34,482 bases of DNA from Paracoccaceae bacterium (GTDB taxonomy: Bacteria > Pseudomonadota > Alphaproteobacteria > Rhodobacterales > Rhodobacteraceae): the NCBI GenBank assembly GCA_023260935.1, contig JALQTL010000371.1, positions 1 through 34,482 of the forward strand, written 5' to 3'. The position numbers were made by a program, and so were the translations under genes. The notes below the pieces were generated by a model. That model was given only the letters and a program-made list of their open reading frames with translations, had not been told where the DNA came from and ran no database searches. This document shows, piece after piece, positions 14,446 through 34,345 of the stretch (position 1 is its first letter; each line of letters opens with the position of its first letter).

Positions 14446-14667
14446 CCCGCCCTCTTGTCCGCTTGAAGCGATGGTTTGCAGGATCGTTCTTAGACTTCCA
14501 GACACATGCCCGAAACCGCCAAACGTGCCGATGCGACGCTTCTTACGAAATTGTAGAGACATGGAAAAGCGATCCTTGGTCGCGGTCCCCGAATACCTGC
14601 GGCAGGCAGGTCCAAAAGCGGGCGCTGGTGCGATCTGCCAGACCGGTCCAGACAGATGCGCCCGCGC

Positions 14668-15144
14668 TTATGCCCGGGCCATGGGCTGCGGGCAGGCATC
14701 GGCCAGCGTTTCCGGCACGCTCAAAAGCGCCTCCAGCCCGCAATTTCCATGGGTCAGATCCGCAAGTGTCACCATATCAAGTTCATGGTAGAAGGCTTCA
14801 ACCGCACGCGCGATAAAGCCGCGCAAGCGGCATTCGTTCGAAAGCGGGCAGGTGTTGGTTTCGGGGTCAAAGCATTCCGCGAAAGGATGCCCTGCTTCGA
14901 ATACGCGAAAGACAGATCCCATCGAAATCTGCTCAGGCGCCCGCGCCAACCGCAGCCCGCCATGCCTGCCGCGCAGCGTTTCGATGAAGCCATGCGCCTG
15001 TAGACCATTCACCACCTGCAAAAGATGGTTCAGCGACGCGTTGCTGACTTGGGCGATTTCCGCTGTGCGCAGGGTCTTGCCCTGATTGCAGGCGCAGGCC
15101 ATCAGCACACGCGCGGCCAGATTGGTCTTTGTTGTAAGGCGCAT
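14668..15144 (-). CDS. nsrR: Rrf2-family transcriptional regulator, NsrR-like
   Basis: MRLTTKTNLAARVLMACACNQGKTLRTAEIAQVSNASLNHLLQVVNGLQAHGFIETLRGRHGGLRLARAPEQISMGSVFRVFE..., cluster ligand set ECFDPETNTCPLSNECRLRG (CX7CX5C). Confidence 0.82.
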   Translation of the reverse strand: MRLTTKTNLAARVLMACACNQGKTLRTAEIAQVSNASLNHLLQVVNGLQAHGFIETLRGRHGGLRLARAPEQISMGSVFRVFEAGHPFAECFDPETNTCPLSNECRLRGFIARAVEAFYHELDMVTLADLTHGNCGLEALLSVPETLADACPQPMARA

Positions 15145-18074: not shown

Positions 18075-19436
18075 GTGGCACGCATCATCGAAATGCTGAA
18101 AGCCCTGTTTGCCCTGGCCCGGTCGGGCGGGATGACGGGTGCCCTGCCCGCCCGGGTGGTGGCCGAAATCGACCGGCGCGAAGCGGCGGGGGAACGGCTG
18201 GTGGGTTGGGTCCAGCTGGCGCTGGTGGTGACCTTTGGCACGCTTTACGCCCTGAGCCCGCGGGCCGAGGGCAGCAGCAATACCAGCTTCACCTCGACCG
18301 TGCTGGTCATCTATTTCGTCTTCACGCTGTTCCGGGTCTGGCTTTCCTATCGGCGGGTGCTTCCAACATGGTATCTTGTGATATCGATCATCGCGGACGT
18401 CGGGCTGCTCTGCGCGCTGATCTATTCCTTCCATATCCAGTACAACCAGCCCGCCGCCTTTTATCTGAAGGCGCCGACGATGATCTATCTGTTCATCTTC
18501 ATCAGCGTCCGGGCACTGCGCTTTGATCCGCGTTTCGTTCTGCTGACCGGGCTGATGGCTGCCGTCGGATGGTTCGCGCTGGTGATCTATGCCCTGAACA
18601 CCGATATGGGTCAGATGCGGATCACCCGAAATTATGTGGATTACATGACGTCGAATTCCATCCTGATCGGGGCCGAGATCGACCGCGGCATCGCCATACT
18701 GGGGGTGACCTTCGTGCTGACGCTGGCGCTGTACCGGGCGCGGGCGGTTCTGATCGATGCCATCAGCAGCCATACCGCGGCATCCGATCTTGCCCAGTTC
18801 TTTTCGCCGCAGGTTGCCGCATCGATCACGAAGGCAGACGATCTGCCGGCGGCGCAGATGTCAAAAACCCGCGAGGCGGCGATCCTGATGGTGGATCTGC
18901 GCTCTTTTACCGCCACCGCAGCCAAACTGCCCGCCGAAGCCGTGATGACGGTGCTGGGGCTGTATCAGGATGCGGCCGTGCGGGTGATCGAGGCGCACGA
19001 CGGGCAGATCGACAAGTTCATGGGCGACGGGATCCTTGCCACTTTCGGCGCCGTCGAGGACAGTGAAACCCATGCCGCTGACGCGCTGCGCGCGGCGGTT
19101 GCGCTGACCCTGGCGATTGACGCGATCGAGCCCGCAGTCCGTGCGGCGGGCTGGTCCGGCCCCTTTCAGGCCGGCATTGCCGTTTCCAGCGGCCTGGTCA
19201 CGGTGGGGGTTGTGGGCGGGCAGAGCCGGCTGGAATTCACGGTGATCGGCAATGCCGTGAATACCGCCGCCAAGCTGGAAGCCGCCAACAAGGTGGAAGG
19301 CACCAGAGTCTTGACCGATGCGGCAACCTTCGACCGCGCCATGGCGCAGGGCCATGATCTGCCGGCAGTGGAAATGCGGCCGGGGCGGCATATCTCGGGA
19401 TTGGCAAAGCCGGTGGATCTGGTGGTTCTGGCCTGA
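18075..19436 (+). CDS. Class III adenylate/guanylate cyclase with N-terminal multi-TM anchor
   Basis: GTG start; roughly six TM stretches, then EAAILMVDLRSFTATAAKL..., DKFMGDGILATFG, LEFTVIGNAVNTAAKLEAA. Confidence 0.88.
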   Translation: MARIIEMLKALFALARSGGMTGALPARVVAEIDRREAAGERLVGWVQLALVVTFGTLYALSPRAEGSSNTSFTSTVLVIYFVFTLFRVWLSYRRVLPTWYLVISIIADVGLLCALIYSFHIQYNQPAAFYLKAPTMIYLFIFISVRALRFDPRFVLLTGLMAAVGWFALVIYALNTDMGQMRITRNYVDYMTSNSILIGAEIDRGIAILGVTFVLTLALYRARAVLIDAISSHTAASDLAQFFSPQVAASITKADDLPAAQMSKTREAAILMVDLRSFTATAAKLPAEAVMTVLGLYQDAAVRVIEAHDGQIDKFMGDGILATFGAVEDSETHAADALRAAVALTLAIDAIEPAVRAAGWSGPFQAGIAVSSGLVTVGVVGGQSRLEFTVIGNAVNTAAKLEAANKVEGTRVLTDAATFDRAMAQGHDLPAVEMRPGRHISGLAKPVDLVVLA

Positions 19437-19532
19437 GACTGGCGGGAGGGGATGAGGAAGCACGAAAGCAGACGAACGAAAAGCCGCGGTATTTTCAGGG
19501 CCATTGACCCCTGACCGCGAAAAACGGCATTG

Positions 19533-19548
19533 TGGCACCGCCGGTGCT
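19533..19548 (+). promoter_or_regulatory. Possible sigma-54 -24/-12 element TGGCAC-CGCCG-GTGCT
   Basis: GG-N10-GC spacing and TGGCAC match; overlaps a GCACCG-C-CGGTGC palindrome, so chance in GC-rich DNA is possible. Confidence 0.2.
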
Positions 19549-19655
19549 GGCCGTTCTTCTTCATCATTCCGCCGATCCGGACATCACCCGCAATCCGCCC
19601 GACCAGCCCTCGCCCCGCCCGTTGCGGTGATGCAGCAGACGACAAGGACAAAGAC

Positions 19656-21422
19656 ATGGTCCACACCCAACCAGCAGGCCCCGCAGCGGCGCCGGGCGCA
19701 GGCCGCCCCCGCGTCCGCCGGATGCGGGCAAGCTGGCTGCGGCTTGCTTCGGGTCTGGTGCTGTTCGGCTTTGTCCTGACGCATCTTCTGAACCACGCGC
19801 TGGGGCTGATCTCTATCGACGCGATGCTGGCCGTGCAGGAATGGCGCACCGCGATCACCCGCAGCCTTCCGGGAACGGCCTTGCTGATCGGCTCTGCCGT
19901 GATCCATATGCTGCTGGGGCTGGCACGGCTGACCGGGTTGCACAGCTGGCGGATCGGCCTTTCCGGCCTGTTGCAACTGGGCTTCGGCCTGCTGATCCCG
20001 ATCCTGATGGTCCGCCATGTTCTGGGAACCCGGGGCGTTCACAGCCTGTTCGGTATCGAGGACGATTACACCTATGCCCTCTGGGCGATATGGCCGGGCG
20101 AGGCGCTGAACATGGCGATCCTGATCGTTCTGGTCTGGGTGCATGGCTGCATCGGCCTGCATTACTGGCTGGACCGGCGGGCGTGGTATCGGCGGTTCCT
20201 GTGGCTGTGGCAGGGGTTGGCGCTTCTGATACCGGTGCTGGCCTACAGCGGCTTTGTCAGCGCCGGACGGCTGGTTCATCTGCAAGGGGGATATGTCAGC
20301 CCGTTCAAGCCCGGCCAGTATGAAGAAATCACCGGGCTGATGCTGACCTCGCAAAAGGTCTATTACGGGATGCTGGCGGCAAGCGTCTTGATCTGGCTGT
20401 TGCTGCTGCTGGCCAACCGGCTGGGGTCGCGGGTGACAGTCACCTATGCCAACGGGCCCACGGTACAGGCCCCGCGCGGGCTGTCGCTGCTGGCCATCAG
20501 CCGGATCAACCGGGTGCCGCATGCATCGGTCTGCGGCGGCAGGGCACGCTGTTCCACCTGCCGCGTGCGTGTGCTGGCGGGGCAAGACCAGCTGAACCCG
20601 CCTTCGGAACAGGAACAGCGGGTGTTGCGCCGGGTTGGGGCGCCGGCCAATGTGCGGCTGGCCTGCCAGATCTTTCCCACCGCCAACCTGACGGTTTCCA
20701 CCCTTTTGCCGGCCCGCGCCGATGCGCAGCGCGATCAGGGGGGCGACAAGTATCTGTGGGGCGTGGAACAGGATGTCACGGTGATGTTCTGCGATCTTCG
20801 CGGCTTTACCCGGATGGCCGAGGGCCGGCTTTCCTATGACGTGGTATTCCTGCTGAACCAGTTCCTTGGCTGCATGGCCGACACGATCGAAGAGACGGGC
20901 GGCTTTGTCGACAAGTTCATGGGCGATGGCGTGATGGCGATCTTTGGCATCGACAAGCCCCGCGATGAAGGCGCCCGTCAGGCGCTTGCGGCGGCCCGGG
21001 CCATGGGCGGGGTGCTGGATGCCCTGAACCAGAGCCTGCGCGAGGCCCTGCCTGCCCCGCTGTCGATGGGCATCGGCATTCACAGCGGCGCGGCCATCCT
21101 GGGCCGCATCGGGGCGGTGCGGCAGTCAGAGGCCGGCACCGCCCGCCTGACTGCCCTTGGCGAAACCGTCAATCTGGCCAGCCGTCTGGAGGGCATGACC
21201 AGGGATCTTGGCGTTCAGCTTGCGCTTTCGGCTGTCACCGTCGAATGGGCGGGTCTTCCGCCCGCGCCGGGGCTTGATGCCCAAGAGGTTGACGTGCGCG
21301 GACTAAGCCACCCGATTGCCATCTTTGCCGTGAAGCGCGCGGCAGACCTGCCCCAACCGTCCGATGGCCCCACGCCGCAGGGGGCCGCTGCACCGGAAAC
21401 GGCCATCGCCGCCGCCGGCTGA
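19656..21422 (+). CDS. Redox-type class III adenylate cyclase: SdhC-like His-rich 6TM anchor + [2Fe-2S] ferredoxin + cyclase domain (CyaC-like)
   Basis: TM His motifs (THLLNHALG, VIHMLLG, MVRHVLG, WVHGCIGLHYWL); ferredoxin SVCGGRARCSTCRVRV...LACQ (CX5CX2CX34C); cyclase VTVMFCDLRGFTRMAE, DKFMGDGVMAIFG, LTALGETVNLASRLEG. Confidence 0.9.
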   Translation: MVHTQPAGPAAAPGAGRPRVRRMRASWLRLASGLVLFGFVLTHLLNHALGLISIDAMLAVQEWRTAITRSLPGTALLIGSAVIHMLLGLARLTGLHSWRIGLSGLLQLGFGLLIPILMVRHVLGTRGVHSLFGIEDDYTYALWAIWPGEALNMAILIVLVWVHGCIGLHYWLDRRAWYRRFLWLWQGLALLIPVLAYSGFVSAGRLVHLQGGYVSPFKPGQYEEITGLMLTSQKVYYGMLAASVLIWLLLLLANRLGSRVTVTYANGPTVQAPRGLSLLAISRINRVPHASVCGGRARCSTCRVRVLAGQDQLNPPSEQEQRVLRRVGAPANVRLACQIFPTANLTVSTLLPARADAQRDQGGDKYLWGVEQDVTVMFCDLRGFTRMAEGRLSYDVVFLLNQFLGCMADTIEETGGFVDKFMGDGVMAIFGIDKPRDEGARQALAAARAMGGVLDALNQSLREALPAPLSMGIGIHSGAAILGRIGAVRQSEAGTARLTALGETVNLASRLEGMTRDLGVQLALSAVTVEWAGLPPAPGLDAQEVDVRGLSHPIAIFAVKRAADLPQPSDGPTPQGAAAPETAIAAAG

Positions 21423-21441: not shown

Positions 21442-23067
21442 TCAGGGGCCAAGCCCCTGCATCGGACCTTGCTGGTTGGCGCGGGCAAGGGCGGCTGCCA
21501 GAAGGCGCAGCAGCGCCCGCAGCCACAGCCCGGCGGGATCTTCGGCACTGCCTTGCCATTCTGCCAGCCGGAGCAACAGTGCCACCCGGTCGGGGGGCAG
21601 ATGCGGCAGGGCAAGGGCCCCGCCCTCGACCAGCAGGAAGACCTGCGGCAGAACATCGGCCAAGGGAATTTCGGGCAGGGGAGTCCCGGCCCCCGCCGCG
21701 CTGGCGGAACCGGTAGCCCCGATCAGCAAGGGCAGGTCAGACAAACGGCGGTCAGCAAGGGCGGACCAGATACCGGGCGGTGCGCCGCGCGGCAGGCGGC
21801 GCGTCAGCAGGCGGTTCCGGTGGCAGGCGGCCAGAAAGCGGCCAAAGGGCTGATCGTGCTCGTGCAGGCCTGCGCCTTCGGCCGCATACAGCACACTTGC
21901 CAACGGGTCGGGCGGCAGGTCCGCCAGCGACATTGTCGTCATCGAAAGCCCGTCGGCGTCACCTTCCAGCAGGGTGAACGCAGGAGGAAAGGCGCAGGTC
22001 GATGGCAGGGACACATCGGTGATCTGCCCGGCAGCGGTATCGGCCCGACTGGTGGCGTGCAGGTGCAAATGGCCCCCGAAGTGCAACCGCAGACCCGCAG
22101 CCGCCAGCCGTTCCGCGACGGCAGGTGAAGGGCTGCGCCGCGCCAGCGCATCATCGGGCAGCACCGCCGAAAACCCGGGCAAGGGCGGCAGGATCGGATA
22201 ATGCGAAACCGGCAGCAACAGCTTGCCCTGCTGGCGCGCGCGGCGGACCACATCGCCAATCCAGTCCAGAAGGAAGGGCTTTACCCGCAACACCGCATCC
22301 CACCCCGCATTGGCCGGATCATGGAAGGCCCGCTTGCGGCGGGGATCGGCGATGCCGGGCCTAGGCTCGAACACCGTGGCATCCAGCATCAACAGCCAAA
22401 GCCCCGGCTCCGGTTCCACCAGATACGAGGCATCGGTCAGCCAATGGGCCGTGCCGCCATCGGCCGACCCGGCCAGAAAGCGGCGGTCTTCAAAGCTGTC
22501 CGATGGGCCAAAGGGGCTTTCCCAATGCAGATGCCACGGCTGCCGGCGCAAGCCAAAGGCCGCCATCGGTTCCAGCGCCTGTGGAAAGCCGGGGCAGCGC
22601 AACGCCGCCGACAGAACAGACCCAGGGGCATGGGCCGCCGCCAGATCGGGGTCGCTTGTCACAAGTTCCGATTGCCCCGGCCCGGTCGCCTGCCGGATCG
22701 CCAGATGCTTGCCCGCCACGCCATAGCCATCGTGATTGCCGGGCAAGGCAAGAAACCTCAGCCCCAGCCGGGCCTCGGCCTCGTGCAACAGGGCCGACAG
22801 TCGCCGCAGGTTTTCGGCCTGCCCGTCATCGCTGTAATCCCCGGCCAGCACGACAAGCCGGATGCCGCTGGCCGCGATCCGTTCCAGCGCCGCGCGAAAG
22901 GCCATGGCGCTTTCATTCACGGCCCGGCCACTGGCGCGCACCGCCTCCCAAGGTCGCAGGCTGTAGGGCCGCCCGCCAATCGGAAAACCTGCCCCCCCGA
23001 AATCACCGGCCGGATCGTGCAGATGCGCATCTGCAATCAGCGCAAGGCGGTGGCGGGCCTGCGGCAT
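21442..23067 (-). CDS. Calcineurin-like metallophosphoesterase
   Basis: Motifs ADAHLHDP, LAGDYSDDG, LPGNHDGYG, VSHYPILP, GGHLHLHA in order; 541 aa with C-terminal extension. Confidence 0.87.
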   Translation of the reverse strand: MPQARHRLALIADAHLHDPAGDFGGAGFPIGGRPYSLRPWEAVRASGRAVNESAMAFRAALERIAASGIRLVVLAGDYSDDGQAENLRRLSALLHEAEARLGLRFLALPGNHDGYGVAGKHLAIRQATGPGQSELVTSDPDLAAAHAPGSVLSAALRCPGFPQALEPMAAFGLRRQPWHLHWESPFGPSDSFEDRRFLAGSADGGTAHWLTDASYLVEPEPGLWLLMLDATVFEPRPGIADPRRKRAFHDPANAGWDAVLRVKPFLLDWIGDVVRRARQQGKLLLPVSHYPILPPLPGFSAVLPDDALARRSPSPAVAERLAAAGLRLHFGGHLHLHATSRADTAAGQITDVSLPSTCAFPPAFTLLEGDADGLSMTTMSLADLPPDPLASVLYAAEGAGLHEHDQPFGRFLAACHRNRLLTRRLPRGAPPGIWSALADRRLSDLPLLIGATGSASAAGAGTPLPEIPLADVLPQVFLLVEGGALALPHLPPDRVALLLRLAEWQGSAEDPAGLWLRALLRLLAAALARANQQGPMQGLGP

Positions 23068-23072
23068 GCAGG

Positions 23073-23561
23073 TCAGTCCGGGCGGCGGCGGTACAGGAAA
23101 TAGCGCCCCTGTTCGACGCCCCCGGGCAGGGGCAACGGGACCAGCCGCGCATCTTCCAGCGGCAGGCCGCTGGCCGCCACCCCACCGGGCGCCAGAAGGC
23201 TGGCCACCAGCCCCGGCAACCAGACCAGCGTATCGGCATCCTTTTCGGGATAGCCGGTGCCGATATCGGCATGCACCAGCGCCGCCCCCTTTCCGGCAAA
23301 GCGGGCTGCCGTCTGACGAATTTCCCCCAGCACCAGATCATCCGGAGCGGGCACGCTGGACCCATGCGCCCCGAGCGCCCGGTCAAAGGCGATGATGCGC
23401 CGGCCGGCAAACCTTTCGCGCAGGTGGCTGTAGGTGCGCCCGTTGCCCAGCCCCACCTCCAGCACCGCGCCTGTTGCCGGAAGGTCCAGATCGGCGGCGA
23501 TATGGTTCAGGATATCCCGCTGCGCCAACATGCGGCGGATGAAACTGTCAAGACGGCTCAT
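23073..23561 (-). CDS. Class I SAM-dependent methyltransferase-like protein
   Basis: GAVLEVGLGNGRTYSHLRERFAGRRIIAFDRALGAH: motif I plus acidic residue; short (162 aa). Confidence 0.7.
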   Translation of the reverse strand: MSRLDSFIRRMLAQRDILNHIAADLDLPATGAVLEVGLGNGRTYSHLRERFAGRRIIAFDRALGAHGSSVPAPDDLVLGEIRQTAARFAGKGAALVHADIGTGYPEKDADTLVWLPGLVASLLAPGGVAASGLPLEDARLVPLPLPGGVEQGRYFLYRRRPD

Positions 23562-23571
23562 CAGCTTCCTT

Positions 23572-24891
23572 TCAGGCCTTCACCACCTTGTCCATCGGCA
23601 GGCCAAGCCGGCCAAAGACATTGCGTGTGTCGATGATCAGCGCCGCATGGCTGGCCATGGCCGCATAATCCAGACCGTCATGATCGGTTGAAATCAGCAC
23701 CGCTTCAAAGCCTTGCAGGCTGGCCGCATCCAGCGGCACCGACCGGCGCCCCATCAGCGCACCATAGGCGCGGGTGCGGGGGATCTGGGGAACGAAGGGA
23801 TCGTGATAATCCGCCCGGCCACCCCGTTCCTCGATCAGTTCGATCAGGCGCAGCGACGGGCTTTCACGAATATCGGGCACGTTCTTCTTGTAGGCCAGCC
23901 CCACGACCAGCACCCGTGACCTGCTGAGCGCGCGGCCAAGGCGCCTGTCCAGTGCCTCGGCCAGACGGTTGACCACATGGCGCGGCATGGCGGAATTGAT
24001 CTCTCCCGCCAGTTCGATGAAGCGCGTGGTCAGATCGTATTCGCGCGATTTCCACGTCAGGTAAAAGGGATCGATCGGGATGCAGTGCCCGCCCAGCCCG
24101 GGCCCGGGATAGAAGGGCATATAGCCAAAGGGCTTGGTCTTGGCGGCTTCGATCACTTCCCAGATATCAATGCCCATGGCGTCGTAGATCACCTTCAACT
24201 CGTTCACCAGAGCGATGTTGACGGCGCGAAAGACGTTTTCGGTGATCTTCACCGCCTCGGCCGTGGCGGGGGTGGAAACCGGCACCACACGCGCCACCAC
24301 GGCGCTGTAGAACGCCTCGATCAGGGCCGTGGCGCGTGGGCCGTCACCGGCCACCACCTTGGGGATGCTGGCGGTATCGAAAGCGCGGTTGCCGGGGTCT
24401 TCCCGTTCGGGCGAAAAGCCAAGGAAGAAATCCTGCCCCGACCGCAACCCGCCGCGTTCCAGCACCGCCTTTACCGGCCCATCGGTCGTGCCGGGATAGG
24501 TGGTGCTTTCCAGCACGATCACCTGATCGGGGCGCAGAGTGGCGGCAATGTCTTCGCAGGTGCGCAGAACGAAGGAAAGGTCAGGCTCTCGATGCCGGGT
24601 CAGCGGCGTGGGCACGCAGATCACGATCACATCGCATTGGCCCAGACGGGCAAAATCCCCGGTTGCCGCGAACCGGCCCGCCGCAACCTCTGCGGCCAGA
24701 GCGGGCTGTGGCACAGCCTCGATATAACTTTCGCGCGCATCGATCGCGGTGATCTTGGCCGGGTCGGTATCAAACCCCAGAACGGTGAACCCCGCCCGCG
24801 CCGAGGCCACGGCAAGCGGCAAGCCAACATAGCCCAGCCCGATGACGCCCACTTGTGCGCGCCGCGCGGTGATCTTTTCCAGAAGTGTCAT
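23572..24891 (-). CDS. Nucleotide sugar dehydrogenase (UDP-HexNAc/UDP-glucose 6-dehydrogenase family, WbpA-like)
   Basis: MTLLEKITARRAQVGVIGLGYVGLPLAVASARAGFTVLGFD..., ESTTYPGTTDGPVK, FGYMPFYPGPGLGGHCIPIDPFYLTWKSRE, GLAYKKNVPDIRESPS. Confidence 0.93.
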   Translation of the reverse strand: MTLLEKITARRAQVGVIGLGYVGLPLAVASARAGFTVLGFDTDPAKITAIDARESYIEAVPQPALAAEVAAGRFAATGDFARLGQCDVIVICVPTPLTRHREPDLSFVLRTCEDIAATLRPDQVIVLESTTYPGTTDGPVKAVLERGGLRSGQDFFLGFSPEREDPGNRAFDTASIPKVVAGDGPRATALIEAFYSAVVARVVPVSTPATAEAVKITENVFRAVNIALVNELKVIYDAMGIDIWEVIEAAKTKPFGYMPFYPGPGLGGHCIPIDPFYLTWKSREYDLTTRFIELAGEINSAMPRHVVNRLAEALDRRLGRALSRSRVLVVGLAYKKNVPDIRESPSLRLIELIEERGGRADYHDPFVPQIPRTRAYGALMGRRSVPLDAASLQGFEAVLISTDHDGLDYAAMASHAALIIDTRNVFGRLGLPMDKVVKA

Positions 24892-24996
24892 GCCTTGCCC
24901 AGCGCTGCCTCGTGCTGTGACATGGGGCGCACCGACAAGGCCTGTCAAGCGACGCGCCCGCGTTTCAGCCTTTCGTGAACAGGGTCAAGGCTGCGG

Positions 24997-25058: not shown

Positions 25059-26177
25059 ATGGCGCGACCGGCGCGGCGCATCGCCTTTTACGCCCCGCTG
25101 AAGGCGCCAGATCATCCGGTGCCTTCGGGTGACAGGCTGATGGCGCGCCAGATCTGGGCGGCTCTGGAACAGGCGGGCTACCGGCCAGAACTGGCCTCGA
25201 GCCTGCGCGCCCGGATCGGCGACAGCGACGATTGGGCCGGCTGGGCCGGCCTGCAACAGACCGCAACGGCCGAGCAGGCGCGGATTGCCGCCCGATGGGG
25301 GCGCGACGGGCCGCCGGACCTTTGGTTCAGCTATCACCCCTATTACAAATCTCCCGACCTGATCGGCCCGCCCCTTGCCCGGCGCTTTGGCCTGCCCCTG
25401 ATCACCTGCGAGGCATCGTGGTCAGCCCGGCGCAACGTCGGCATCTGGGCCCAGATGCAGGCACTGGCGCTGGATGCCGTTTGCGCGGCGGCGCTGAACC
25501 TGTGCCTGACCACGCGCGATGCGGCGGGGCTGGCGCTGGCGGCACCACAGGCGCAGCTTTCGGCCTTTCCGCCCTTCATCGACATGACCGCCTTTACCGC
25601 CCCGCCCCGGCCCGAACCGGGCCACATCGTGACCGTGGCGATGATGCGCGCGGGCGACAAACTGGCCAGCTATCGCGCGCTGGCACAGGTGCTGGAACAG
25701 CTTCCCCCGGCGCTTGACTGGCGGCTAAGCATTGCAGGCGGCGGGCAGGCCGAGGCCGAGGTTCGGGCGCTTTTTGCCGGTCTGCCGGCGGGCCGGGTAG
25801 ACTGGTGCGGCGCACTGGACCGCGCCGGTGTGGCGGCGCTCTTGGCGCGCGGCATGGTCTATCTCTGGCCCGGATACGGCGAAGCCTATGGTCTGGCCTA
25901 TCTGGAAGCGCAGGCGGCGGGCCTGCCGGTTGTGGCCTTTCGCACCGCAGGTGTGCCCGAGGTGGTGGCCCCTGAAACCGGCGGCGCGCTGGTGCCCGAA
26001 GGCGATACCGGCGCCATGGCGGCAGCCGTGGCGGCCCTGCTGGCCGACCCGGCCCGCGCCAGCCGGGAAGGGGCCGCCGCCCGGCAACAGGTGGCTGCGC
26101 GCCATTCCTTCACCGCGGCCACGGGCCGTCTGGCAACAATGATCGAATCCATCTGCACCGGCACGAGGCTTTCATGA
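25059..26177 (+). CDS. Glycosyltransferase, GT4/group 1-like
   Basis: MARPARRIAFYAPLKAPDHPVPSGDRLMARQIWAALEQAG..., C-terminal YLWPGYGEAYGLAYLEAQAAGLPVVAFRTAGVPEVVAPETGGALVPEGD. Confidence 0.9.
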   Translation: MARPARRIAFYAPLKAPDHPVPSGDRLMARQIWAALEQAGYRPELASSLRARIGDSDDWAGWAGLQQTATAEQARIAARWGRDGPPDLWFSYHPYYKSPDLIGPPLARRFGLPLITCEASWSARRNVGIWAQMQALALDAVCAAALNLCLTTRDAAGLALAAPQAQLSAFPPFIDMTAFTAPPRPEPGHIVTVAMMRAGDKLASYRALAQVLEQLPPALDWRLSIAGGGQAEAEVRALFAGLPAGRVDWCGALDRAGVAALLARGMVYLWPGYGEAYGLAYLEAQAAGLPVVAFRTAGVPEVVAPETGGALVPEGDTGAMAAAVAALLADPARASREGAAARQQVAARHSFTAATGRLATMIESICTGTRLS

Positions 26178-26938
26178 CCGCACCCACCCTGCGCAAGACG
26201 CTGGATGACCTTGCCAATCGCGGGCAGCAGGCTGTTCTGTGGTGGCGCGATGACGATGCTGTGCAGCCGACGCCTGATCTGGACCGGCTGCTGGCAACCT
26301 CGGCCCGCTGGCAGGTGCCGGTCACGCTGGCGGTGATCCCCGAACCGACTGGCCCTGCATTGGCAGAGCGTCTGGCCCACAGCCCCGCGGCCAATGTGGC
26401 CGTTCACGGCTGGAATCACCGCAACCATGCCCCGGCGGGAGAGAAAAAGCAGGAACTGGGCAGCCACCGGCCGCAGGTTCAGGTGCTGGCCGAATTGGCG
26501 GCCGGTCTGGCGCGGCTGCATGCCCTGCACGGCGCGCATCTCGTGCCCGTGCTGGTGCCGCCATGGAACCGTATCGCGCCCGCGCTGCTGCCGGCGCTGG
26601 CGCGCTGTGGGTTTCAGGCGCTTTCAGTCTTTGGCCCGGCGCGGCCGGGGCCCATTCCGGCCATCAACACCCATGTCGACCTGATGGATTGGCACGGCAC
26701 AAGGGGCGGCCGGGCAACCGATGATCTGCTGGCCGAACTGGCAAAGGCCATTGCGGCTTCGGTTCAAGTGGCCACGGGGCCAGAGCCACTTGGCATCCTT
26801 TCGCATCATCTGGTGCATGATGCCCGAGCATGGCACTTTCTGGACGTGCTGTTCGATCTGACACGGGATCACCCCGGATGCCGCTGGGTCGGGCTGCCCG
26901 ATCTTTTGCCGCCGAGTGATCGCGCGCTGATACCCTGA
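26174..26938 (+). CDS. Polysaccharide deacetylase-like (NodB-fold) protein
   Basis: WWRDDDAVQPTPDLDRLLATSARWQVPVTLAVIPEP..., AVHGWNHRNHAPAGEKKQELG; ATGA overlap with the preceding GT. Confidence 0.75.
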   Translation: MTAPTLRKTLDDLANRGQQAVLWWRDDDAVQPTPDLDRLLATSARWQVPVTLAVIPEPTGPALAERLAHSPAANVAVHGWNHRNHAPAGEKKQELGSHRPQVQVLAELAAGLARLHALHGAHLVPVLVPPWNRIAPALLPALARCGFQALSVFGPARPGPIPAINTHVDLMDWHGTRGGRATDDLLAELAKAIAASVQVATGPEPLGILSHHLVHDARAWHFLDVLFDLTRDHPGCRWVGLPDLLPPSDRALIP

Positions 26939-26986: not shown

Positions 26987-27033
26987 TTGCCAACAAAATG
27001 GCGAAGGGGGCCAGCCCCCCGGGGCTGGGCGCA

Positions 27034-28980
27034 ATGGAACCCGACGCAATGCCGACAGACGGACCGACAGCGGCAACAGATCTGCTGAGGATAGAGGATC
27101 TTCGCGTCTCGTTTCCCTTGCCGGGCGGGCAGCTTGATGCGCTGAAGGGCGTCAGCCTTCGGGTTCTGCCGGGCAAGGTAACGGCGCTTGTCGGGGAATC
27201 CGGTTCCGGCAAATCCGTTCTGGGGCAGGTGGTCATGGGGCTTCAGCCCGAAACGGCCCGCACCTCGGGGCGCATTCTCTTTACCCGGCCTGATGGCGAC
27301 GGCACCCCGCAAGACTTGCTGAAAATGCCGCGTGACGGGCGGCAGATCCGGTCCATCCGGGGCCGTCATATCGGCATGATCTTTCAGGAACCGATGACCT
27401 CGTTTTCACCGCTGCACACGGTGGGCAACCAGATTGCCGAGGTTTTGCAGATTCACGATAGCCTTTCGCCGGCCGAACAACGCGAAAAATCCGAAGCGAT
27501 GCTGTCGCTTGTGGGCTTTGCAGACCCGCGGCGGGTGTTCGACATGTATCCGTTCGAATTGTCGGGTGGCATGCGGCAACGTGCGATGATCGCCATGGCG
27601 CTGATCTGCGGCCCGTCTTTGCTGATTGCCGATGAACCGACAACTGCGCTGGATGTGACGATTCAGGCGCAGATCCTGACGCTCTTGCGCGATCTGCAAC
27701 AGCGGCTGAACATGGCGGTGCTGCTGATCACCCATGATCTGGGGGTTGTGGCGAATGTGGCCGACGAAGTGGTGGTGATCTACCGCGGCCGCATCATGGA
27801 GGCCGGACCGGTTCAGCCGATCTTCCGCAATCCCGGGCATGCCTATCTGAAGGGTCTGATGAACGCCATTCCGCACTTCGGCATGGACCGGGGCGAAAGG
27901 CTGCGACCCTTGCGCGAAATAGCGCTGGACCGCAGCCGCCTGCATGGCGCCATTGGCGCAACGGCACCCGTTGCCCCCGGTTCAACCGGGGTGCAGGTTG
28001 ACGGGGCGCCGGTGCTGCTGTCGGTACGCAATCTGCGCAAGACCTTTGAGACCCGCCAGCAGCAATGGCGCATCGGCTCAAAGGAACAGGCACAGGCGCC
28101 GGCCGTGGATGGCGTCAGCTTCGACATCCGCCGCGGCGAATGTCTGGGCCTTGTGGGCGAAAGCGGCTGCGGCAAGACCACTGTAAGCAAGATTCTGATG
28201 CGGGCCATCACGCCGGATGACGGATCTGTCGTCTTTGACGATGGTACCGGGCCGGTGGATGTGCTGAAAGCCGAAGGGGCCGCGCTGCAAAAGCTGCGCC
28301 AGCGGATCCAGATGGTGTTCCAAGACCCGGTTTCATCGCTGTCGCCGCGGATGACCGTGGGCAATATCCTTGCCGAACCGATGGAAATTCACGGCATCGG
28401 CAATGCCGAAAGCCGGCGTGCCAGCACATCCGCCCTGCTGGAGGCGATCGGGCTGGAACGCAGTGCCAGCACCCGCTATCCGCACAGCTTTTCCGGGGGG
28501 CAGCGGCAGCGTATCGGCATTGCGCGCGCCCTGACGCTGGCCCCCGGGCTGGTCATCTGCGACGAACCCGTTTCGGCGCTGGATGCTTCGGTTCAGGCGC
28601 AGATCCTGAACATGCTGAAGGATCTTCAACGCGATCTGGGGCTGACCTATCTTTTCATCTCACACAACCTTGCGGTTGTCGACTACATGGCAGACCGGGT
28701 GGCCGTGATGTGGCGCGGCCGGATCGTGGAACTTGCCCCGCGGGAACGGCTGATGCAGGCGCCCGTCCACCCCTATACAAAGGCGCTGCTGGCCGCCGTG
28801 CCCCACCCCGATCCGGCAAGGTCGCTTGATTTTGCCACTGTCGGCCGGTCCAGCAGCGAAAGCAGCGCCGAGTGGCCCCGCGCATTTCGGGCCGAAAGCG
28901 GCATGGTGCCGCTGGATCTGGGATCGGGGCATTTCGTGCTGGCCGATCCGAAGGCCGATGCGGCAGAGGTGCGGGCATGA
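27034..28980 (+). CDS. ABC transporter ATP-binding protein, two fused ATPase domains (oligopeptide type, Dpp/Opp/YejF-like)
   Basis: Two Walker A (GESGSGKS, GESGCGKT) and two signature motifs (LSGGMRQRAMIA, FSGGQRQRIGIA). Start may be 26998 or 27034. Confidence 0.93.
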   Translation: MEPDAMPTDGPTAATDLLRIEDLRVSFPLPGGQLDALKGVSLRVLPGKVTALVGESGSGKSVLGQVVMGLQPETARTSGRILFTRPDGDGTPQDLLKMPRDGRQIRSIRGRHIGMIFQEPMTSFSPLHTVGNQIAEVLQIHDSLSPAEQREKSEAMLSLVGFADPRRVFDMYPFELSGGMRQRAMIAMALICGPSLLIADEPTTALDVTIQAQILTLLRDLQQRLNMAVLLITHDLGVVANVADEVVVIYRGRIMEAGPVQPIFRNPGHAYLKGLMNAIPHFGMDRGERLRPLREIALDRSRLHGAIGATAPVAPGSTGVQVDGAPVLLSVRNLRKTFETRQQQWRIGSKEQAQAPAVDGVSFDIRRGECLGLVGESGCGKTTVSKILMRAITPDDGSVVFDDGTGPVDVLKAEGAALQKLRQRIQMVFQDPVSSLSPRMTVGNILAEPMEIHGIGNAESRRASTSALLEAIGLERSASTRYPHSFSGGQRQRIGIARALTLAPGLVICDEPVSALDASVQAQILNMLKDLQRDLGLTYLFISHNLAVVDYMADRVAVMWRGRIVELAPRERLMQAPVHPYTKALLAAVPHPDPARSLDFATVGRSSSESSAEWPRAFRAESGMVPLDLGSGHFVLADPKADAAEVRA

Positions 28981-30863
28981 TCACACGGCGGCGCGCAATC
29001 GCAGGGCTGATGGGCAGCTTGGCCCTGCCCCGGATAGCCCGGGCCGAGGCACCCCAGCCGGCCGGCCAGCCCGCGCCCCTTGGCGAAATGACAGACCGGC
29101 TGCCGCTGAACCCCCGGGTGATCGACCTGCCGGGACTGGGCCGAGCCACCGGGCAACAGGGCGGCACGCTGCGCATTCTGGTGGGTGGCCAACGCGATGT
29201 GCGGCTGATTCCGATCTATAGCTATGCCCGTCTGCTGACCTATGGCCCGGATCTTCAGTTGCGCCCCGATATCCTTGCCGGCGTGGATGTGGAAGACGAT
29301 CAGATCTTCACCTTCCACCTGCGCGAAGGCCATCGCTGGTCGGACGGCACGCCGTTCACCGCCGAGGATTTCCGCTATACTTGGGAAGATGTGATTTCCC
29401 ACCCGAAACTGTACAAGAGCGGCCCGCCGCCCGAACTGGTAGCCAGCGGTCAGCCCGCCCGGTTCGAGGTGCTGGATGACCTGACCGTCCGCTACAGCTT
29501 TGTCAGCCCGATGCCGGCTTTTCTGCCAAAGCTCGCCGCGCCATTGCCGACCGTGCTGTTCATGCCCAGCGCCTATCTGAAGCAGTTTCACGCAAGCTAT
29601 GCAGATGAGGCATCGCTGACCCGGCTGGCCGAAGAGCAACGGGTGGATGACTGGCGGCGCCTGCACATCAAGATGTCGCGGTCCATCCGGCCGGAAAACC
29701 CTGACCTGCCGACGCTGGAGGCGTGGCGTCCGCGCACCGCCCCCCCGGCCGAACAGTTCGTGTTTGAACGCAACCCCTATTTCCATCGGGTTGATCAGGC
29801 AGGCACGCAACTACCCTATTTCGACCGGGTGGTGCTGAACGTCGTCTCGTCCGAAATCATTCTGGCGAAGACAGCCACCGGGGAAAGCGATCTTCAGGCT
29901 GCCGGCCTGGCCTTTCCCGATTACACCCTGTTGAAGCGGGCGGAAAAGACCCACCCGCTGCGCGTGGCCCTGTGGCGGAAATCGCAAGGGTCGGCCATGG
30001 CGCTGTTTCCGAACCTCAACTGTGTCGATCCGGTCTGGCGTGACCTGTTCCGCGATGTGCGGATGCGGCGCGCCCTGTCGGTTGCCATCAACCGCGAGGA
30101 AATCAACAAGGCGCTGTTCTTCGGCCTCGGCGTGGAAAGCGCTGATACGGTGATGCCCGATTGCCCGCTGTATCGCCCGGACTACGCCCGGGCCTGGGCG
30201 CAATATGACCCCGATCTGGCCAATGCGCTGCTGGATGAACTCGGCCTGACCGAGCGCGGGTCAGGCGGCATCCGCCGTCTGCCCGATGGCCGTCAGGCGG
30301 GGATCGTGGTGGAGACGGCGGGGGAAAGCACGCTTGAAACCGATATTCTGGAACTGATCCGCGATCACTACCGCGAGGTGGGGCTGGCGCTTTACATCCG
30401 CACCTCTCAGCGCGACGTGTTCCGCAGCCGGGTGCTGGCAGGGCTGGTGCAGCTTTCGGTTTGGCAGGGGCTGGATAACGGCGTGCCCGATGCCCACAGC
30501 TCTCCCGAAGGCTTGGTGCCCACAACCGGTGATCAGCTGCAATGGCCGCTGTGGGGCAGCTGGTATGCGTCGGGCGGGTCGGCGGGTGAAGCGCCCGACA
30601 TGCCCGAAGTGGTGGCCCTGATGGACCTGCTGAAAGCCTGGGGCGACAGCGACGATCCGCAGATGCGTGAAAGGATCTGGCACCAGATTCTTGCCCTGCG
30701 GGCCGATCAGGTGTTTTCGATCGGCACGGTCAACGGCGCCTTGCAACCGCTGGTGCGGTCTGCCCGGCTGGTCAACCTGCCCGAAGAAGCCCTTTACGGC
30801 TTTGAACCCACCAGTTTCCTGGGCGCCTATCTGCCCGATACCTTCTTTTACGCGCAGGTCTAG
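28977..30863 (+). CDS. ABC transporter substrate-binding protein, SBP_bac_5 family
   Basis: Tat-like RRR leader (MITRRRAIAGLMGSLALP); LREGHRWSDGTPFTAEDFRYTWEDV, RMRRALSVAINREEINKALFFGLG; ATGA overlap with the ATPase gene. Confidence 0.92.
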   Translation: MITRRRAIAGLMGSLALPRIARAEAPQPAGQPAPLGEMTDRLPLNPRVIDLPGLGRATGQQGGTLRILVGGQRDVRLIPIYSYARLLTYGPDLQLRPDILAGVDVEDDQIFTFHLREGHRWSDGTPFTAEDFRYTWEDVISHPKLYKSGPPPELVASGQPARFEVLDDLTVRYSFVSPMPAFLPKLAAPLPTVLFMPSAYLKQFHASYADEASLTRLAEEQRVDDWRRLHIKMSRSIRPENPDLPTLEAWRPRTAPPAEQFVFERNPYFHRVDQAGTQLPYFDRVVLNVVSSEIILAKTATGESDLQAAGLAFPDYTLLKRAEKTHPLRVALWRKSQGSAMALFPNLNCVDPVWRDLFRDVRMRRALSVAINREEINKALFFGLGVESADTVMPDCPLYRPDYARAWAQYDPDLANALLDELGLTERGSGGIRRLPDGRQAGIVVETAGESTLETDILELIRDHYREVGLALYIRTSQRDVFRSRVLAGLVQLSVWQGLDNGVPDAHSSPEGLVPTTGDQLQWPLWGSWYASGGSAGEAPDMPEVVALMDLLKAWGDSDDPQMRERIWHQILALRADQVFSIGTVNGALQPLVRSARLVNLPEEALYGFEPTSFLGAYLPDTFFYAQV

Positions 30864-30866
30864 GCG

Positions 30867-31865
30867 ATGGCGGCTTACATCCTTCGGCGCATCCTGACGA
30901 TGATCCCGACGCTTTTCCTGATATCGATTCTGGTGTTCGTGATCATCGAACTGCCGCCGGGTGACTATTTCGAAAGCTATGTCGCCGAACTGAAAGCGCT
31001 TGGCGAACAGGCCGATCTGGCTGAGATCGAGATGCTGCGTGAAAGATACGGCTTCGACCAGCCCCAATACATCCGGTATCTGCATTGGGTGGGGGGCATG
31101 TTTCATGGCGATTTCGGCTATAGCTTCGCCTATCGGCTGCCGGTCAGCGAGGTGGTGGGCGACAGGCTGTGGCTGACCTTCGTGCTGTCCTTCCTGACCA
31201 TCCTTTTCACCTGGATCGTGGCCTTCCCCATCGGCATCTATTCGGCCACGCATCAATACAGCTGGGGTGATTACGGGCTGACCTTCCTTGGCCTGATCGG
31301 CCTTGCGGTTCCCAATTTCATGCTGGCGCTTCTGATGATGTATTTCGCGAATATCTGGTTTGGCCTGTCGATCGGAAACCTGATGGACAGCACCTATCTG
31401 GATCAGCCGATGAGTTGGGCAAAGGCCCAGTCCATCCTGTCGCATATCTGGATTCCGGTGATCATCATTGGCATGGCCGGGACGGCAGGCATGGTACGGC
31501 GCCTGCGCGCAAACCTGCTGGACGAGTTGCAAAAGCAATATGTCATCACCGCCCGCGCCAAGGGGCTGGCCCCCGGCCGGGTGCTGCGCAAATACCCGCT
31601 GCGCATGGCCCTGAACTTCTTCATCGCCGACATCGGCTCGATCCTGCCGGCCATGATCTCGGGCGCCGAGGTCACGGCCATCGTGCTGTCGCTGGAAACG
31701 ACCGGGCCCATGCTGATCCGGGCCCTGCAAAGCCAGGACATGTATCTGGCCGGGTCGTTCCTGATGTTTCTGGCGGTGCTGACAGTGGTGGGGGTGCTGG
31801 TCTCTGACATCGCGCTGGCGCTGCTTGATCCGCGCATCCGGCTGGGCCGGGGGAATGCCAAATGA
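30867..31865 (+). CDS. ABC transporter permease (DppB/OppB-like)
   Basis: MAAYILRRILTMIPTLFLISILVFVIIELPPGDYF..., VITARAKGLAPGRVLRKYPLRMAL. Confidence 0.94.
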   Translation: MAAYILRRILTMIPTLFLISILVFVIIELPPGDYFESYVAELKALGEQADLAEIEMLRERYGFDQPQYIRYLHWVGGMFHGDFGYSFAYRLPVSEVVGDRLWLTFVLSFLTILFTWIVAFPIGIYSATHQYSWGDYGLTFLGLIGLAVPNFMLALLMMYFANIWFGLSIGNLMDSTYLDQPMSWAKAQSILSHIWIPVIIIGMAGTAGMVRRLRANLLDELQKQYVITARAKGLAPGRVLRKYPLRMALNFFIADIGSILPAMISGAEVTAIVLSLETTGPMLIRALQSQDMYLAGSFLMFLAVLTVVGVLVSDIALALLDPRIRLGRGNAK

Positions 31866-33046
31866 CCCAACACCACAAAAGGCCTGACGGATTGCCGGCC
31901 CCGGGTGCGCCGTTGCAGCATTATGTTTCCGACGTGCCCTTTGACCCCAACGAAGGCGAAGGCCGGCTGGACGGTATGGCCGAGGCGTCGCAACTGCAAC
32001 TCATGTGGTGGCAATTCCGGCGCCACCGGGTTGCCGTGGTGTCGCTTGTGTTTCTGGTGCTTCTCTATGCCAGCATCCTGATCACCGAATTTCTGGCGCC
32101 CTATCATCAGGATACCCGCCATCTGGACGATATCTACGCCCCGCCGCAGCAGGTGCATCTGTTCCACGAAGGGCGTTTTGTCGGCCCCTTCGTCTATGGC
32201 CGAGAGCGCAGTCTTGATATGGAAAACCTGCGCCGGATCTACACCGACGACAAGACGGATGTGCAGAAACTGCGGTTCTTCTGTCAGGGCGATGACTACC
32301 GCTTCTGGGGCATGATCCCGGCCAGCCTGCACCTTGTATGCCCGGCCGAGGGCGGCAACATGTTCCTGCTGGGCACCGACAGGCTGGGGCGGGATGTTCT
32401 GTCGCGTATCCTTTACGGCGCGCGCATTTCTTTGACGATCGGCCTGCTGGGCGTCACGATGAGCCTTGTTCTGGGCATCGTGATCGGCGGGCTGGCGGGC
32501 TATCATGGCGGCTGGTTCGATGCCGCCACGCAGCGCGTGACCGAGGTGCTGCAATCCATCCCGTCGACCCCGCTGTGGATGGCCCTTGCAGCCATCATAC
32601 CGGTGACGTGGAGCCCGATCCTTGTCTATGCCGGGATCACGGTCATCCTTGGCATGTTGGACTGGACGGGGCTGGCGCGGGCGGTCAGATCAAAGCTTCT
32701 GTCCCTGCGTGAGGAAGATTATGTCCTTGCCGCAAGGTTGATGGGGGCAGGCAGTGCGCGCATCATCGGGCGCCATATGGTACCCGGCTTCATGTCGCAC
32801 CTGATTGCCTCGGCCACGCTGACGATACCCGGGATGATCCTTGGCGAAACCGCTCTCAGCTTTCTGGGCATCGGCCTGCGCGCGCCGATCACAAGCTGGG
32901 GCATCATGCTGACCGAAGCCCGCAGCGTGAACATCATCGCACTGTATCCTTGGCTTATTCTGCCTGTTGTGCCCGTGATCCTTGTTGTTCTGGCTTTCAA
33001 TTTCCTGGGAGACGGGCTACGCGATGCCGCTGATCCGTATAAGTAA
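31862..33046 (+). CDS. ABC transporter permease (DppC/OppC-like) with long periplasmic insertion
   Basis: LLGTDRLGRDVLSRILYGARISLTIGLLGV..., EEDYVLAARLMGAGSARIIGRHMVPGFMSHLIASATLTIPGMILGETALSFLGIG; about 100 aa between TM1 and the LLGTD motif. Confidence 0.94.
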   Translation: MTQHHKRPDGLPAPGAPLQHYVSDVPFDPNEGEGRLDGMAEASQLQLMWWQFRRHRVAVVSLVFLVLLYASILITEFLAPYHQDTRHLDDIYAPPQQVHLFHEGRFVGPFVYGRERSLDMENLRRIYTDDKTDVQKLRFFCQGDDYRFWGMIPASLHLVCPAEGGNMFLLGTDRLGRDVLSRILYGARISLTIGLLGVTMSLVLGIVIGGLAGYHGGWFDAATQRVTEVLQSIPSTPLWMALAAIIPVTWSPILVYAGITVILGMLDWTGLARAVRSKLLSLREEDYVLAARLMGAGSARIIGRHMVPGFMSHLIASATLTIPGMILGETALSFLGIGLRAPITSWGIMLTEARSVNIIALYPWLILPVVPVILVVLAFNFLGDGLRDAADPYK

Positions 33047-33124
33047 GGGCAGCGCAAGGGCCTGGCCCCTGTGCAGCCAAAGGCCGGACTTCTGCCCGGT
33101 TTCGCCACAGTCAGGACAATGCCG

Positions 33125-34345
33125 ATGAAAGACCGCGCGCGAAACCACCGCGTTCTGATGTACAGCCACGATACCTTTGGCCTTGGCCATCTTCGCCGCT
33201 GCCGCACCATCGCCCATTCGCTTGTGCAGGATTATCGGGGGATGATGGTTCTCATCATCTCCGGCTCGCAGATCGCGGGGGCCTTCGATTACCGGTCGCG
33301 CGTCGATTTCGTGAAGATTCCCAGCGTCATCAAGCTGCGCAATGGGGAATACACCTCGCTGTCCGAGCATATCGATGTGAAGGACACCATCGAAATGCGG
33401 CGGTCGATCATCCAGCACACGGCGAAATCCTTTCAGCCCGATATCTTCATCGTCGACAAGGAACCGATGGGCCTGCGCGGCGAGATCGAGGATACGCTGG
33501 CCTATCTGAAATCGCAGGGCACCACGCTGGTTCTGGGCCTGCGCGATGTGATGGATGCCCCCCATCTGTTGCAGGCCGAATGGCAGCGCAATGACGTGAT
33601 GGCCAAGATCGACAGGTTCTTCGACCACATCTGGGTCTATGGCCCGCCCGATTTCTATGATCCGCTGACGGGGCTGGATGTGCCGCAATCGGTGCGCGAC
33701 CGGATGGAGTTCGTGGGCTTTCTGGAACGCAGCGCGCATGGCAACAAGCCTTCGCAGAACCAGCCGGAAGGGGAATACATCCTTGTCACCACTGGCGGGG
33801 GTGGCGATGGGGCCGATCTGATCAACGATGTGATGAACGCCTATCTGCATGACCCGGGGCTACCTGAACGCGCGCTGGTGGTCTTGGGCCCCTACATGAC
33901 AGCGGACCTGCGGGCGGAATTCACCCGGAAGGGCCAGTCGATCCCGCAGATCGAGGTGATCGATTTCGATACAAGAATGGAAGAGTTGATCGCCGGGTCC
34001 AAGGCCGTGGTCGGCATGGGCGGCTACAATACCTATTGCGAGATCCTTTCCTTCGACAAGCCGGCGCTGATCGTGCCGCGCGTCATCCCGCGAGAGGAAC
34101 AGCTTTTGCGTGCTTCCCGCGCAGCCGAACTGGGCATGGTCGACATGCTGTTGCCCGAAGAGGCCAGAAACCCCGCCCGAATGGCCGCCGCCCTGCGCGC
34201 GCTGGTGCGCCGCGCCCCGCCGTCAAAGGGCTGGCCCGGCCTGCGGTTGGACGGGCTGGACAACATCTCGGCCCTGGTTGGCGAAGAGCTTGCCCGCAAG
34301 CATCACGCCAGTGCGCCCGCAGCGGAATTGCGGATCGCGACATGA
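33125..34345 (+). CDS. Glycosyltransferase, MurG/GT28-like
   Basis: RVLMYSHDTFGLGHLRRCRTIAHSLVQ..., VTTGGGGDGADLINDV..., AVVGMGGYNTYCEILSFDKPALIVPRVIPREEQLLRA. Confidence 0.85.
   Translation: MKDRARNHRVLMYSHDTFGLGHLRRCRTIAHSLVQDYRGMMVLIISGSQIAGAFDYRSRVDFVKIPSVIKLRNGEYTSLSEHIDVKDTIEMRRSIIQHTAKSFQPDIFIVDKEPMGLRGEIEDTLAYLKSQGTTLVLGLRDVMDAPHLLQAEWQRNDVMAKIDRFFDHIWVYGPPDFYDPLTGLDVPQSVRDRMEFVGFLERSAHGNKPSQNQPEGEYILVTTGGGGDGADLINDVMNAYLHDPGLPERALVVLGPYMTADLRAEFTRKGQSIPQIEVIDFDTRMEELIAGSKAVVGMGGYNTYCEILSFDKPALIVPRVIPREEQLLRASRAAELGMVDMLLPEEARNPARMAAALRALVRRAPPSKGWPGLRLDGLDNISALVGEELARKHHASAPAAELRIAT

What the first reader, a model, noticed from the sequence alone, without database searches (positions are those of the whole stretch)
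18075..21422. Tandem class III cyclases, one with heme-type anchor and [2Fe-2S] ferredoxin domain
Two membrane cyclases with different anchors are encoded in series. The second combines a multi-His SdhC-like anchor, a CX5CX2CX34C ferredoxin domain and an intact cyclase domain, the layout of the redox/quinone-responsive S. meliloti CyaC. The neighbour has a different, His-poor 6TM anchor. The pair could integrate quinone redox state with another membrane signal into cAMP; the pairing is less familiar to me than either protein alone.
Basis: partly seen in the sequence, partly recalled or inferred. Interest (0 to 1): 0.6.

Follow-up and report, generated by a model that had tools for sequence, protein, structure and literature searches.

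The report
Paired adenylate cyclases beside glycan-transport genes
Two neighbouring genes encode membrane enzymes predicted to make the messenger cAMP, one a clear relative of a known respiratory-redox sensor; the pair is kept together in six rare Rhodobacteraceae-type genomes next to genes for sugar-polymer and transport proteins, which suggests that cAMP controls that envelope machinery.

Summary
Window 19656-21422 encodes a full-length orthologue of the quinone-responsive adenylate cyclase CyaC: four membrane His, CX5CX2CX34C ferredoxin and all six class III catalytic residues are present. Its anchor model best matches the dihaem fumarate reductase subunit FrdC. Window 18075-19436 encodes an uncharacterised 6TM cyclase (cyc1) in which the transition-state Arg is Lys, as in all 82 sequences aligned.

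The pairing is real but narrow. In a class-wide sample 54 genomes carry both genes and only the window's has them adjacent; no other genome sampled from the genus has either. Yet six of the seven Rhodobacteraceae-type genomes with a close cyc1 have cyaC directly behind it, usually within about 60 nt and once overlapping by 4 nt, and these CyaCs form one clade.

The stronger context is larger. Across Alphaproteobacteria, cyc1 lies next to an MBL-fold hydrolase, often a stand-alone cAMP-binding protein and an ABC exporter, and a glycosyltransferase/deacetylase/peptide-type ABC cluster. Similar clusters carry other cyclases in rhizobia, CyaC among them. I read the pair as two independent cAMP inputs, one of them respiratory redox, to a cAMP-linked envelope cluster. 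Activity, ligands and regulation are untested.

The parts
18075..19436 (+). cyc1: 6TM-anchored class III cyclase-homology protein, 453 aa, signature SFHxQYxQPxxFYLKxPT in the anchor, Lys400 in place of the transition-state Arg
   Evidence: start may be ATG 18093
19656..21422 (+). cyaC orthologue: four-His 6TM anchor, [2Fe-2S] ferredoxin domain, class III cyclase domain, 588 aa
19437..19655 (+). 219-nt gap between the two genes; 39, 31, -4 and at most about 85 nt in relatives
21442..23067 (-). calcineurin-like metallophosphoesterase (MPE), convergent with cyaC; same place in the P. haematequi MAG and G643
23073..23561 (-). Methyltransf_17 protein, conserved beside the cluster (69-74% in two paired genomes, 61% in R. 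tropici)
23572..24948 (-). nucleotide-sugar dehydrogenase (UGDH), 81-82% identical in two paired genomes
25059..26177 (+). GT4-family glycosyltransferase
26174..26938 (+). polysaccharide deacetylase-like protein (Pfam below cut-off, conserved with the cluster)
26998..28980 (+). fused double-ATPase of a Dpp/Opp-type ABC transporter
28980..30863 (+). family 5 solute-binding protein of that transporter (the listed ORF opens at 28872)
30867..31865 (+). ABC permease B
31862..33046 (+). ABC permease C
33071..34345 (+). GT28/MurG-like glycosyltransferase (GTm)

Best explanation
The pair is a two-gene cyclase operon that gives one cAMP-linked envelope cluster two separate membrane inputs. CyaC reports the redox state of the ubiquinone pool through a dihaem-b anchor and possibly its [2Fe-2S] domain. 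cyc1 reports an unknown membrane or periplasmic signal through a conserved 6TM anchor. Each works as its own homodimer and makes cAMP. The likeliest receiver is the stand-alone cyclic-nucleotide-binding protein that often travels with cyc1 (in this genome on contig C129); an MBL-fold hydrolase of the same set may end the signal. The output is the neighbouring glycosyltransferase / deacetylase / ABC-transport machinery. Shown: gene content, residues, conservation, adjacency and clade. Inferred: co-transcription, enzyme activity, haem binding, quinone sensing, the receiver and the output.
For: CyaC orthology and invariant His/Cys/catalytic residues. FrdC entries are the top three fold matches of its anchor, probability 0.99-1.00. 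Six of seven Rhodobacteraceae-type genomes with close cyc1 have cyaC directly downstream, with gaps of 39, 31 and -4 nt (ATGA overlap) in three of them. Those CyaCs are one clade, support 1.0. Cluster synteny MPE-methyltransferase-UGDH-GT4-PDA-NBD is shared with the P. haematequi MAG and largely with G643. cyc1 lies within 12 kb of the cluster SBP in 28 of 61 class-sample genomes with both. An MBL hydrolase lies upstream of cyc1 on the same strand in 58 of 80 loci, and ABCx in 22, cNMP in 19 and MBL in 48 of 60 well-covered loci. G643 reads ABCx-cNMP-MBL-cyc1-cyaC on one strand. CyaC orthologues also sit beside GT4-PDA in R. tropici and R. leguminosarum. Quinone control of S. meliloti CyaC: PMC10463352.
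Against: No activity, expression or ligand data. cyc1 carries Lys at the transition-state Arg position. 18 CyaC loci of the relatives sample show no polysaccharide deacetylase, GT4, UGDH or SBP relative within about 10 kb and no cNMP, MBL or ABCx relative, so CyaC mostly works elsewhere. One close relative (G765) has cyc1 without cyaC. In the window genome the cNMP-MBL-ABCx genes are on another contig, and there is no promoter evidence for an operon.
Confidence: 0.45

Rival explanations
1. The genes are neighbours by descent only. CyaC moved in beside cyc1 once in a Rhodobacteraceae ancestor and both simply feed the global cAMP pool and CRP-type regulators.
For: Paired CyaCs are a single clade, so one insertion explains all six. 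Most genomes with both genes keep them apart. Both are patchy, accessory genes.
Against: The pair persists across separate genera at about 60% identity while flanking order changes, with near-overlapping genes. CyaC also joined the same kind of cluster in rhizobia in a separate clade.
Confidence: 0.27
2. cyc1 is a weak or inactive cyclase kept for regulation, and CyaC is the only effective enzyme of the pair.
For: Lys replaces the transition-state Arg in 82 of 82 cyc1 sequences, window included. Its domain scores lower than CyaC's.
Against: Both metal Asp and the Asn are invariant, the base-contacting Lys and Thr almost so, and the change is family-wide, also in genomes without a CyaC neighbour.
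Confidence: 0.15
3. The two proteins form a heterodimer that computes quinone state and a second signal in one active-site pair.
For: Conserved adjacency in six genomes; class III active sites form at dimer interfaces (general knowledge).
Against: CyaC has a complete residue set and S. meliloti CyaC prevails as a dimer (PMC10463352). cyc1 and CyaC lie apart, or one occurs without the other, in most genomes. The anchors show no similarity to each other, and K400 does not depend on the partner.
Confidence: 0.08

Closest known systems
CyaC (SMc01818) of Sinorhizobium meliloti, redox-regulated adenylate cyclase (PMC10463352, citing Wissig 2019)
   Same: Full-length alignment at 39% identity, four membrane His, four Fe-S Cys, six catalytic residues, same domain order. 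The reference copy is L133, flanked by LysR-type and TetR-type (RutR) genes as described for SMc01817 and CycR.
   Different: No LysR or TetR partner gene beside it; paired with a second cyclase and an envelope-gene cluster; haem and quinone response not tested here.
FrdC, dihaem membrane anchor of Wolinella succinogenes quinol:fumarate reductase
   Same: Top three Foldseek matches of the CyaC anchor model, probability 0.99-1.00.
   Different: E-values 0.1-0.3, TM about 0.5, model from five sequences only; no Pfam match of the anchor to a succinate dehydrogenase family.
6TM-anchored bacterial class III adenylate cyclases
   Same: Six membrane segments, long helix into a class III domain; nearest solved catalytic domains are bacterial adenylate cyclases such as 2w01, CyaB (3r5g) and photoactivated cyclases.
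   Different: cyc1 anchor has no confident PDB fold match, its own signature motif, and Lys for the transition-state Arg.
S. meliloti, Mesorhizobium and R. tropici plasmid clusters with ABC exporter, cNMP-binding protein, MBL hydrolase, glycosyltransferases and Dpp-type ABC genes
   Same: Same gene families, 36-76% identity for the main members.
   Different: Their cyclases are other types (449-aa soluble cyclase, DUF3095 neighbour) or CyaC, not cyc1. I found no paper describing the cluster.

Membership tests
CyaC-type redox cyclase | 6TM anchor with four membrane His (haem-b ligand candidates) | tested here: met
   H43, H84, H121, H163 invariant in 56 homologues apart from gaps in one sequence
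CyaC-type redox cyclase | [2Fe-2S] ferredoxin domain between anchor and cyclase | tested here: met
   Fer2 35.4 bits, CX5CX2CX34C, four Cys invariant
CyaC-type redox cyclase | complete class III catalytic residues | tested here: met
   D380, D424, K420, T499, N506, R510
CyaC-type redox cyclase | groups with S. meliloti CyaC as a full-length homologue | tested here: met
   39% over 91% of length; in one tree, within the Rhodobacteraceae branch
CyaC-type redox cyclase | binds two haem b and responds to quinone | not testable with these tools
   needs spectroscopy and enzyme assay
SdhC/FrdC-like anchor | fold match to dihaem FrdC | tested here: inconclusive
   top three hits with probability 0.99-1.00, but E 0.1-0.3 and TM about 0.5
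SdhC/FrdC-like anchor | sequence match to a Pfam succinate dehydrogenase or fumarate reductase anchor family | tested here: not met
   only Guanylate_cyc and Fer2 found
canonical class III adenylate cyclase (cyc1) | class III catalytic domain above curated cut-off | tested here: met
   43.3 bits against 21.9
canonical class III adenylate cyclase (cyc1) | two metal Asp, base-contacting Lys and Thr, transition-state Asn | tested here: met
   D274, D318, K314, T389, N396
canonical class III adenylate cyclase (cyc1) | transition-state Arg | tested here: not met
   Lys400 in the window and 81 relatives; so cyc1 is filed as a class III homologue, not as a canonical adenylate cyclase

The most novel reading that the evidence does not exclude
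Alphaproteobacteria carry an undescribed, non-transcriptional cAMP module: swappable membrane or soluble cyclases (the cyc1 family, CyaC, others) plus a stand-alone cAMP-binding protein, an MBL hydrolase and an unusual ABC exporter that control a glycan and peptide-type transport cluster. In this lineage respiratory redox was wired into it through CyaC.
Probability: 0.3. Interest if true: 0.8.

Novelty: new variant of a known kind. Interest (0 to 1): 0.55.

Why it matters
S. meliloti CyaC has a known input (quinone redox), but what cAMP from such cyclases controls outside S. meliloti is open. A cluster that keeps cyclases, a cAMP-binding protein without a DNA-binding domain, a hydrolase and envelope genes together makes a direct cAMP-to-envelope route testable in laboratory strains, among them S. 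meliloti and R. tropici, which hold related clusters. The cyc1 family also offers a natural test of catalysis without the transition-state Arg.

Tried and rejected
Misbinned contig: rejected, because the RND pump at 5448-8591 is 74-88% identical to same-family genomes and MPE relatives at 39-40% are in same-genus genomes, although cyc1 and cyaC themselves were not found in the 15 other genus genomes. 'Pair never conserved': my first conclusion from the class sample, overturned by the named-genome scan and the family search. YejABEF identity of the ABC cluster: not supported, since the solute-binding protein matches only weakly to Opp/Nik-type models. Fold of the cyc1 anchor: no confident PDB match. 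Literature searches for the cluster found nothing, but only open-licence papers are held. Promoter scan uninformative.

Full report
What is there. Two co-directional ORFs lie at 18075-19436 and 19656-21422. The window is a whole contig (C114) of an 83%-complete draft genome in 479 contigs, which has two further cyclases, both on contig C129. The contig belongs to the family: the RND pump at 5448-8591 is 74-88% identical to same-family genomes.

The second gene is a CyaC orthologue. Full-length homologues at 37-45% occur in 17 of 100 relatives, none in the 15 other genus genomes searched. A reference CyaC of S. meliloti was found (L133). Its neighbours, a LysR-type gene before it and a TetR-type (RutR) gene after it, agree with the published SMc01817/CycR arrangement (PMC10463352). 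In 56 aligned CyaCs, four membrane His, four Fe-S Cys and the cyclase residues are kept almost without exception. The AlphaFold2 model of the anchor (5 sequences, pLDDT 75) has the W. succinogenes FrdC dihaem anchor as its three best PDB matches, though with E-values of 0.1-0.3. Haem binding and quinone response are inferred from CyaC, not tested.

The first gene is a family of its own. cyc1 has invariant or nearly invariant anchor residues, among them D108, H120, Q125, K132 and E201, around the motif SFHxQYxQPxxFYLKxPT. In its catalytic domain the metal Asp and transition-state Asn are invariant, but the transition-state Arg is Lys in all 82 sequences. The anchor model (40 sequences, pLDDT 84) has no confident PDB match.

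Is the pair conserved? In an evenly drawn class sample of 385 genomes, 71 have cyc1 and 112 have CyaC; 54 have both, and only the window's has them within 2 kb. Four genomes of one genus have them about 9-10 kb apart. A scan of named genomes and a search of 397 family genomes changed the picture. Close cyc1 relatives are rare (six family genomes with the window), but cyaC lies directly downstream in the Paracoccus haematequi MAG (L175/L268), Rhodobacterales bin44 (L176/L269), Rhodobacteraceae UBA6273 (L179), G572 (L270) and G643 (L272), and not in G765 (L271). L175 and L268, and L176 and L269, have equal contig lengths and identities and are counted once each. Gaps are 39, 31 and -4 nt in L268, L179 and L270, at most about 85 in L269, about 62 in L272 and 219 in the window. 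These CyaCs form one clade with support 1.0, sister to unpaired Rhodobacteraceae CyaCs.

The larger neighbourhood. Downstream of the pair lie MPE, a Methyltransf_17 protein, a nucleotide-sugar dehydrogenase, GT4, a deacetylase-like protein, a Dpp-type ABC transporter and a MurG-like glycosyltransferase. cyc1 and the transporter's solute-binding protein lie within 12 kb in 28 of 61 class-sample genomes that have both, often tail-to-tail next to the permeases. In the named loci an MBL-fold hydrolase is upstream of cyc1 on the same strand in 58 of 80, and in Stappiaceae the order is ABC exporter, stand-alone cNMP-binding protein, MBL, cyc1. G643 has that run followed by cyaC. The 18 CyaC loci of the relatives sample show none of these three genes. 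In the window's genome the exporter, cNMP protein and MBL are on C129 (L255 10649-14744), beside a dCache-cyclase and a SAM-cyclase-AAA protein. The cNMP proteins have the phosphate-binding motif GEIAILCDxxRTAT. The 80 named loci were picked by score, so those counts are not an unbiased sample.

The cluster outside cyc1. S. meliloti (L276), Mesorhizobium (L274) and R. tropici (L275) plasmids hold the same gene families. S. meliloti has a different, 449-aa cyclase, Mesorhizobium has cyclases and DUF3095, and R. tropici has both a cyclase and a CyaC, the latter beside GT4-PDA. R. leguminosarum plasmids also have CyaC beside GT4-PDA. Rhizobial cluster CyaCs are a separate branch, so CyaC probably joined this kind of cluster more than once.

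Interpretation. Recurrent recruitment of different cyclases, with a cAMP-binding protein lacking a DNA-binding domain, suggests local cAMP control of the cluster. In this lineage CyaC would add respiratory redox as an input. This is inference from gene neighbourhoods. The product of the cluster, the cyc1 signal, cAMP synthesis by cyc1 and the effect of the cNMP protein are unknown. Searches of the open literature found no description of the cluster, which is weak evidence of novelty because most subscription journals are missing.

Noticed in passing
L255 10649-14744 (own genome, contig C129): ABC exporter, stand-alone cNMP-binding protein and MBL hydrolase in a row, 54-71% identical to the set beside cyc1-cyaC in G643, next to a dCache-cyclase and a SAM-cyclase-AAA protein.
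   Followed up: yes
L183 5838-8432 and relatives: The ABC exporter of the module has its ATPase domain split by about 250 residues, and Walker A Lys is replaced by Arg (GxDGSGR) in the motif variants listed among 29 copies, so it may not be a normal ATPase.
   Followed up: partly
18075-19436: Lys at the transition-state Arg position is invariant in the whole cyc1 family; it may be a catalytic variant.
   Followed up: partly
15495-17651: VTT membrane domain fused to an FAD/NAD disulphide oxidoreductase, 718 aa, directly upstream of cyc1.
   Followed up: no
11860-14562, minus strand: 900-aa lysylphosphatidylglycerol synthase-like protein, beside an Rrf2 regulator (14668-15144).
   Followed up: no
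21442-23067, minus strand: Large metallophosphoesterase convergent with cyaC, found in only three of 60 relatives (39-40% identity) but kept beside cyaC in two paired genomes; its substrate could include cyclic nucleotides, untested.
   Followed up: partly
L276 821-23239 (S. meliloti plasmid p_2, CP050512.1): Related cluster in a model organism with its own 449-aa cyclase, a 155-aa cNMP protein annotated as Crp/Fnr regulator, and a polysaccharide lyase.
   Followed up: partly
L133 (CP090106.1): Record labelled plasmid pSymB is 3.7 Mb and carries the chromosomal cyaC region, so the label looks wrong; the genes between cyaC and RutR are two IS4 transposases.
   Followed up: no
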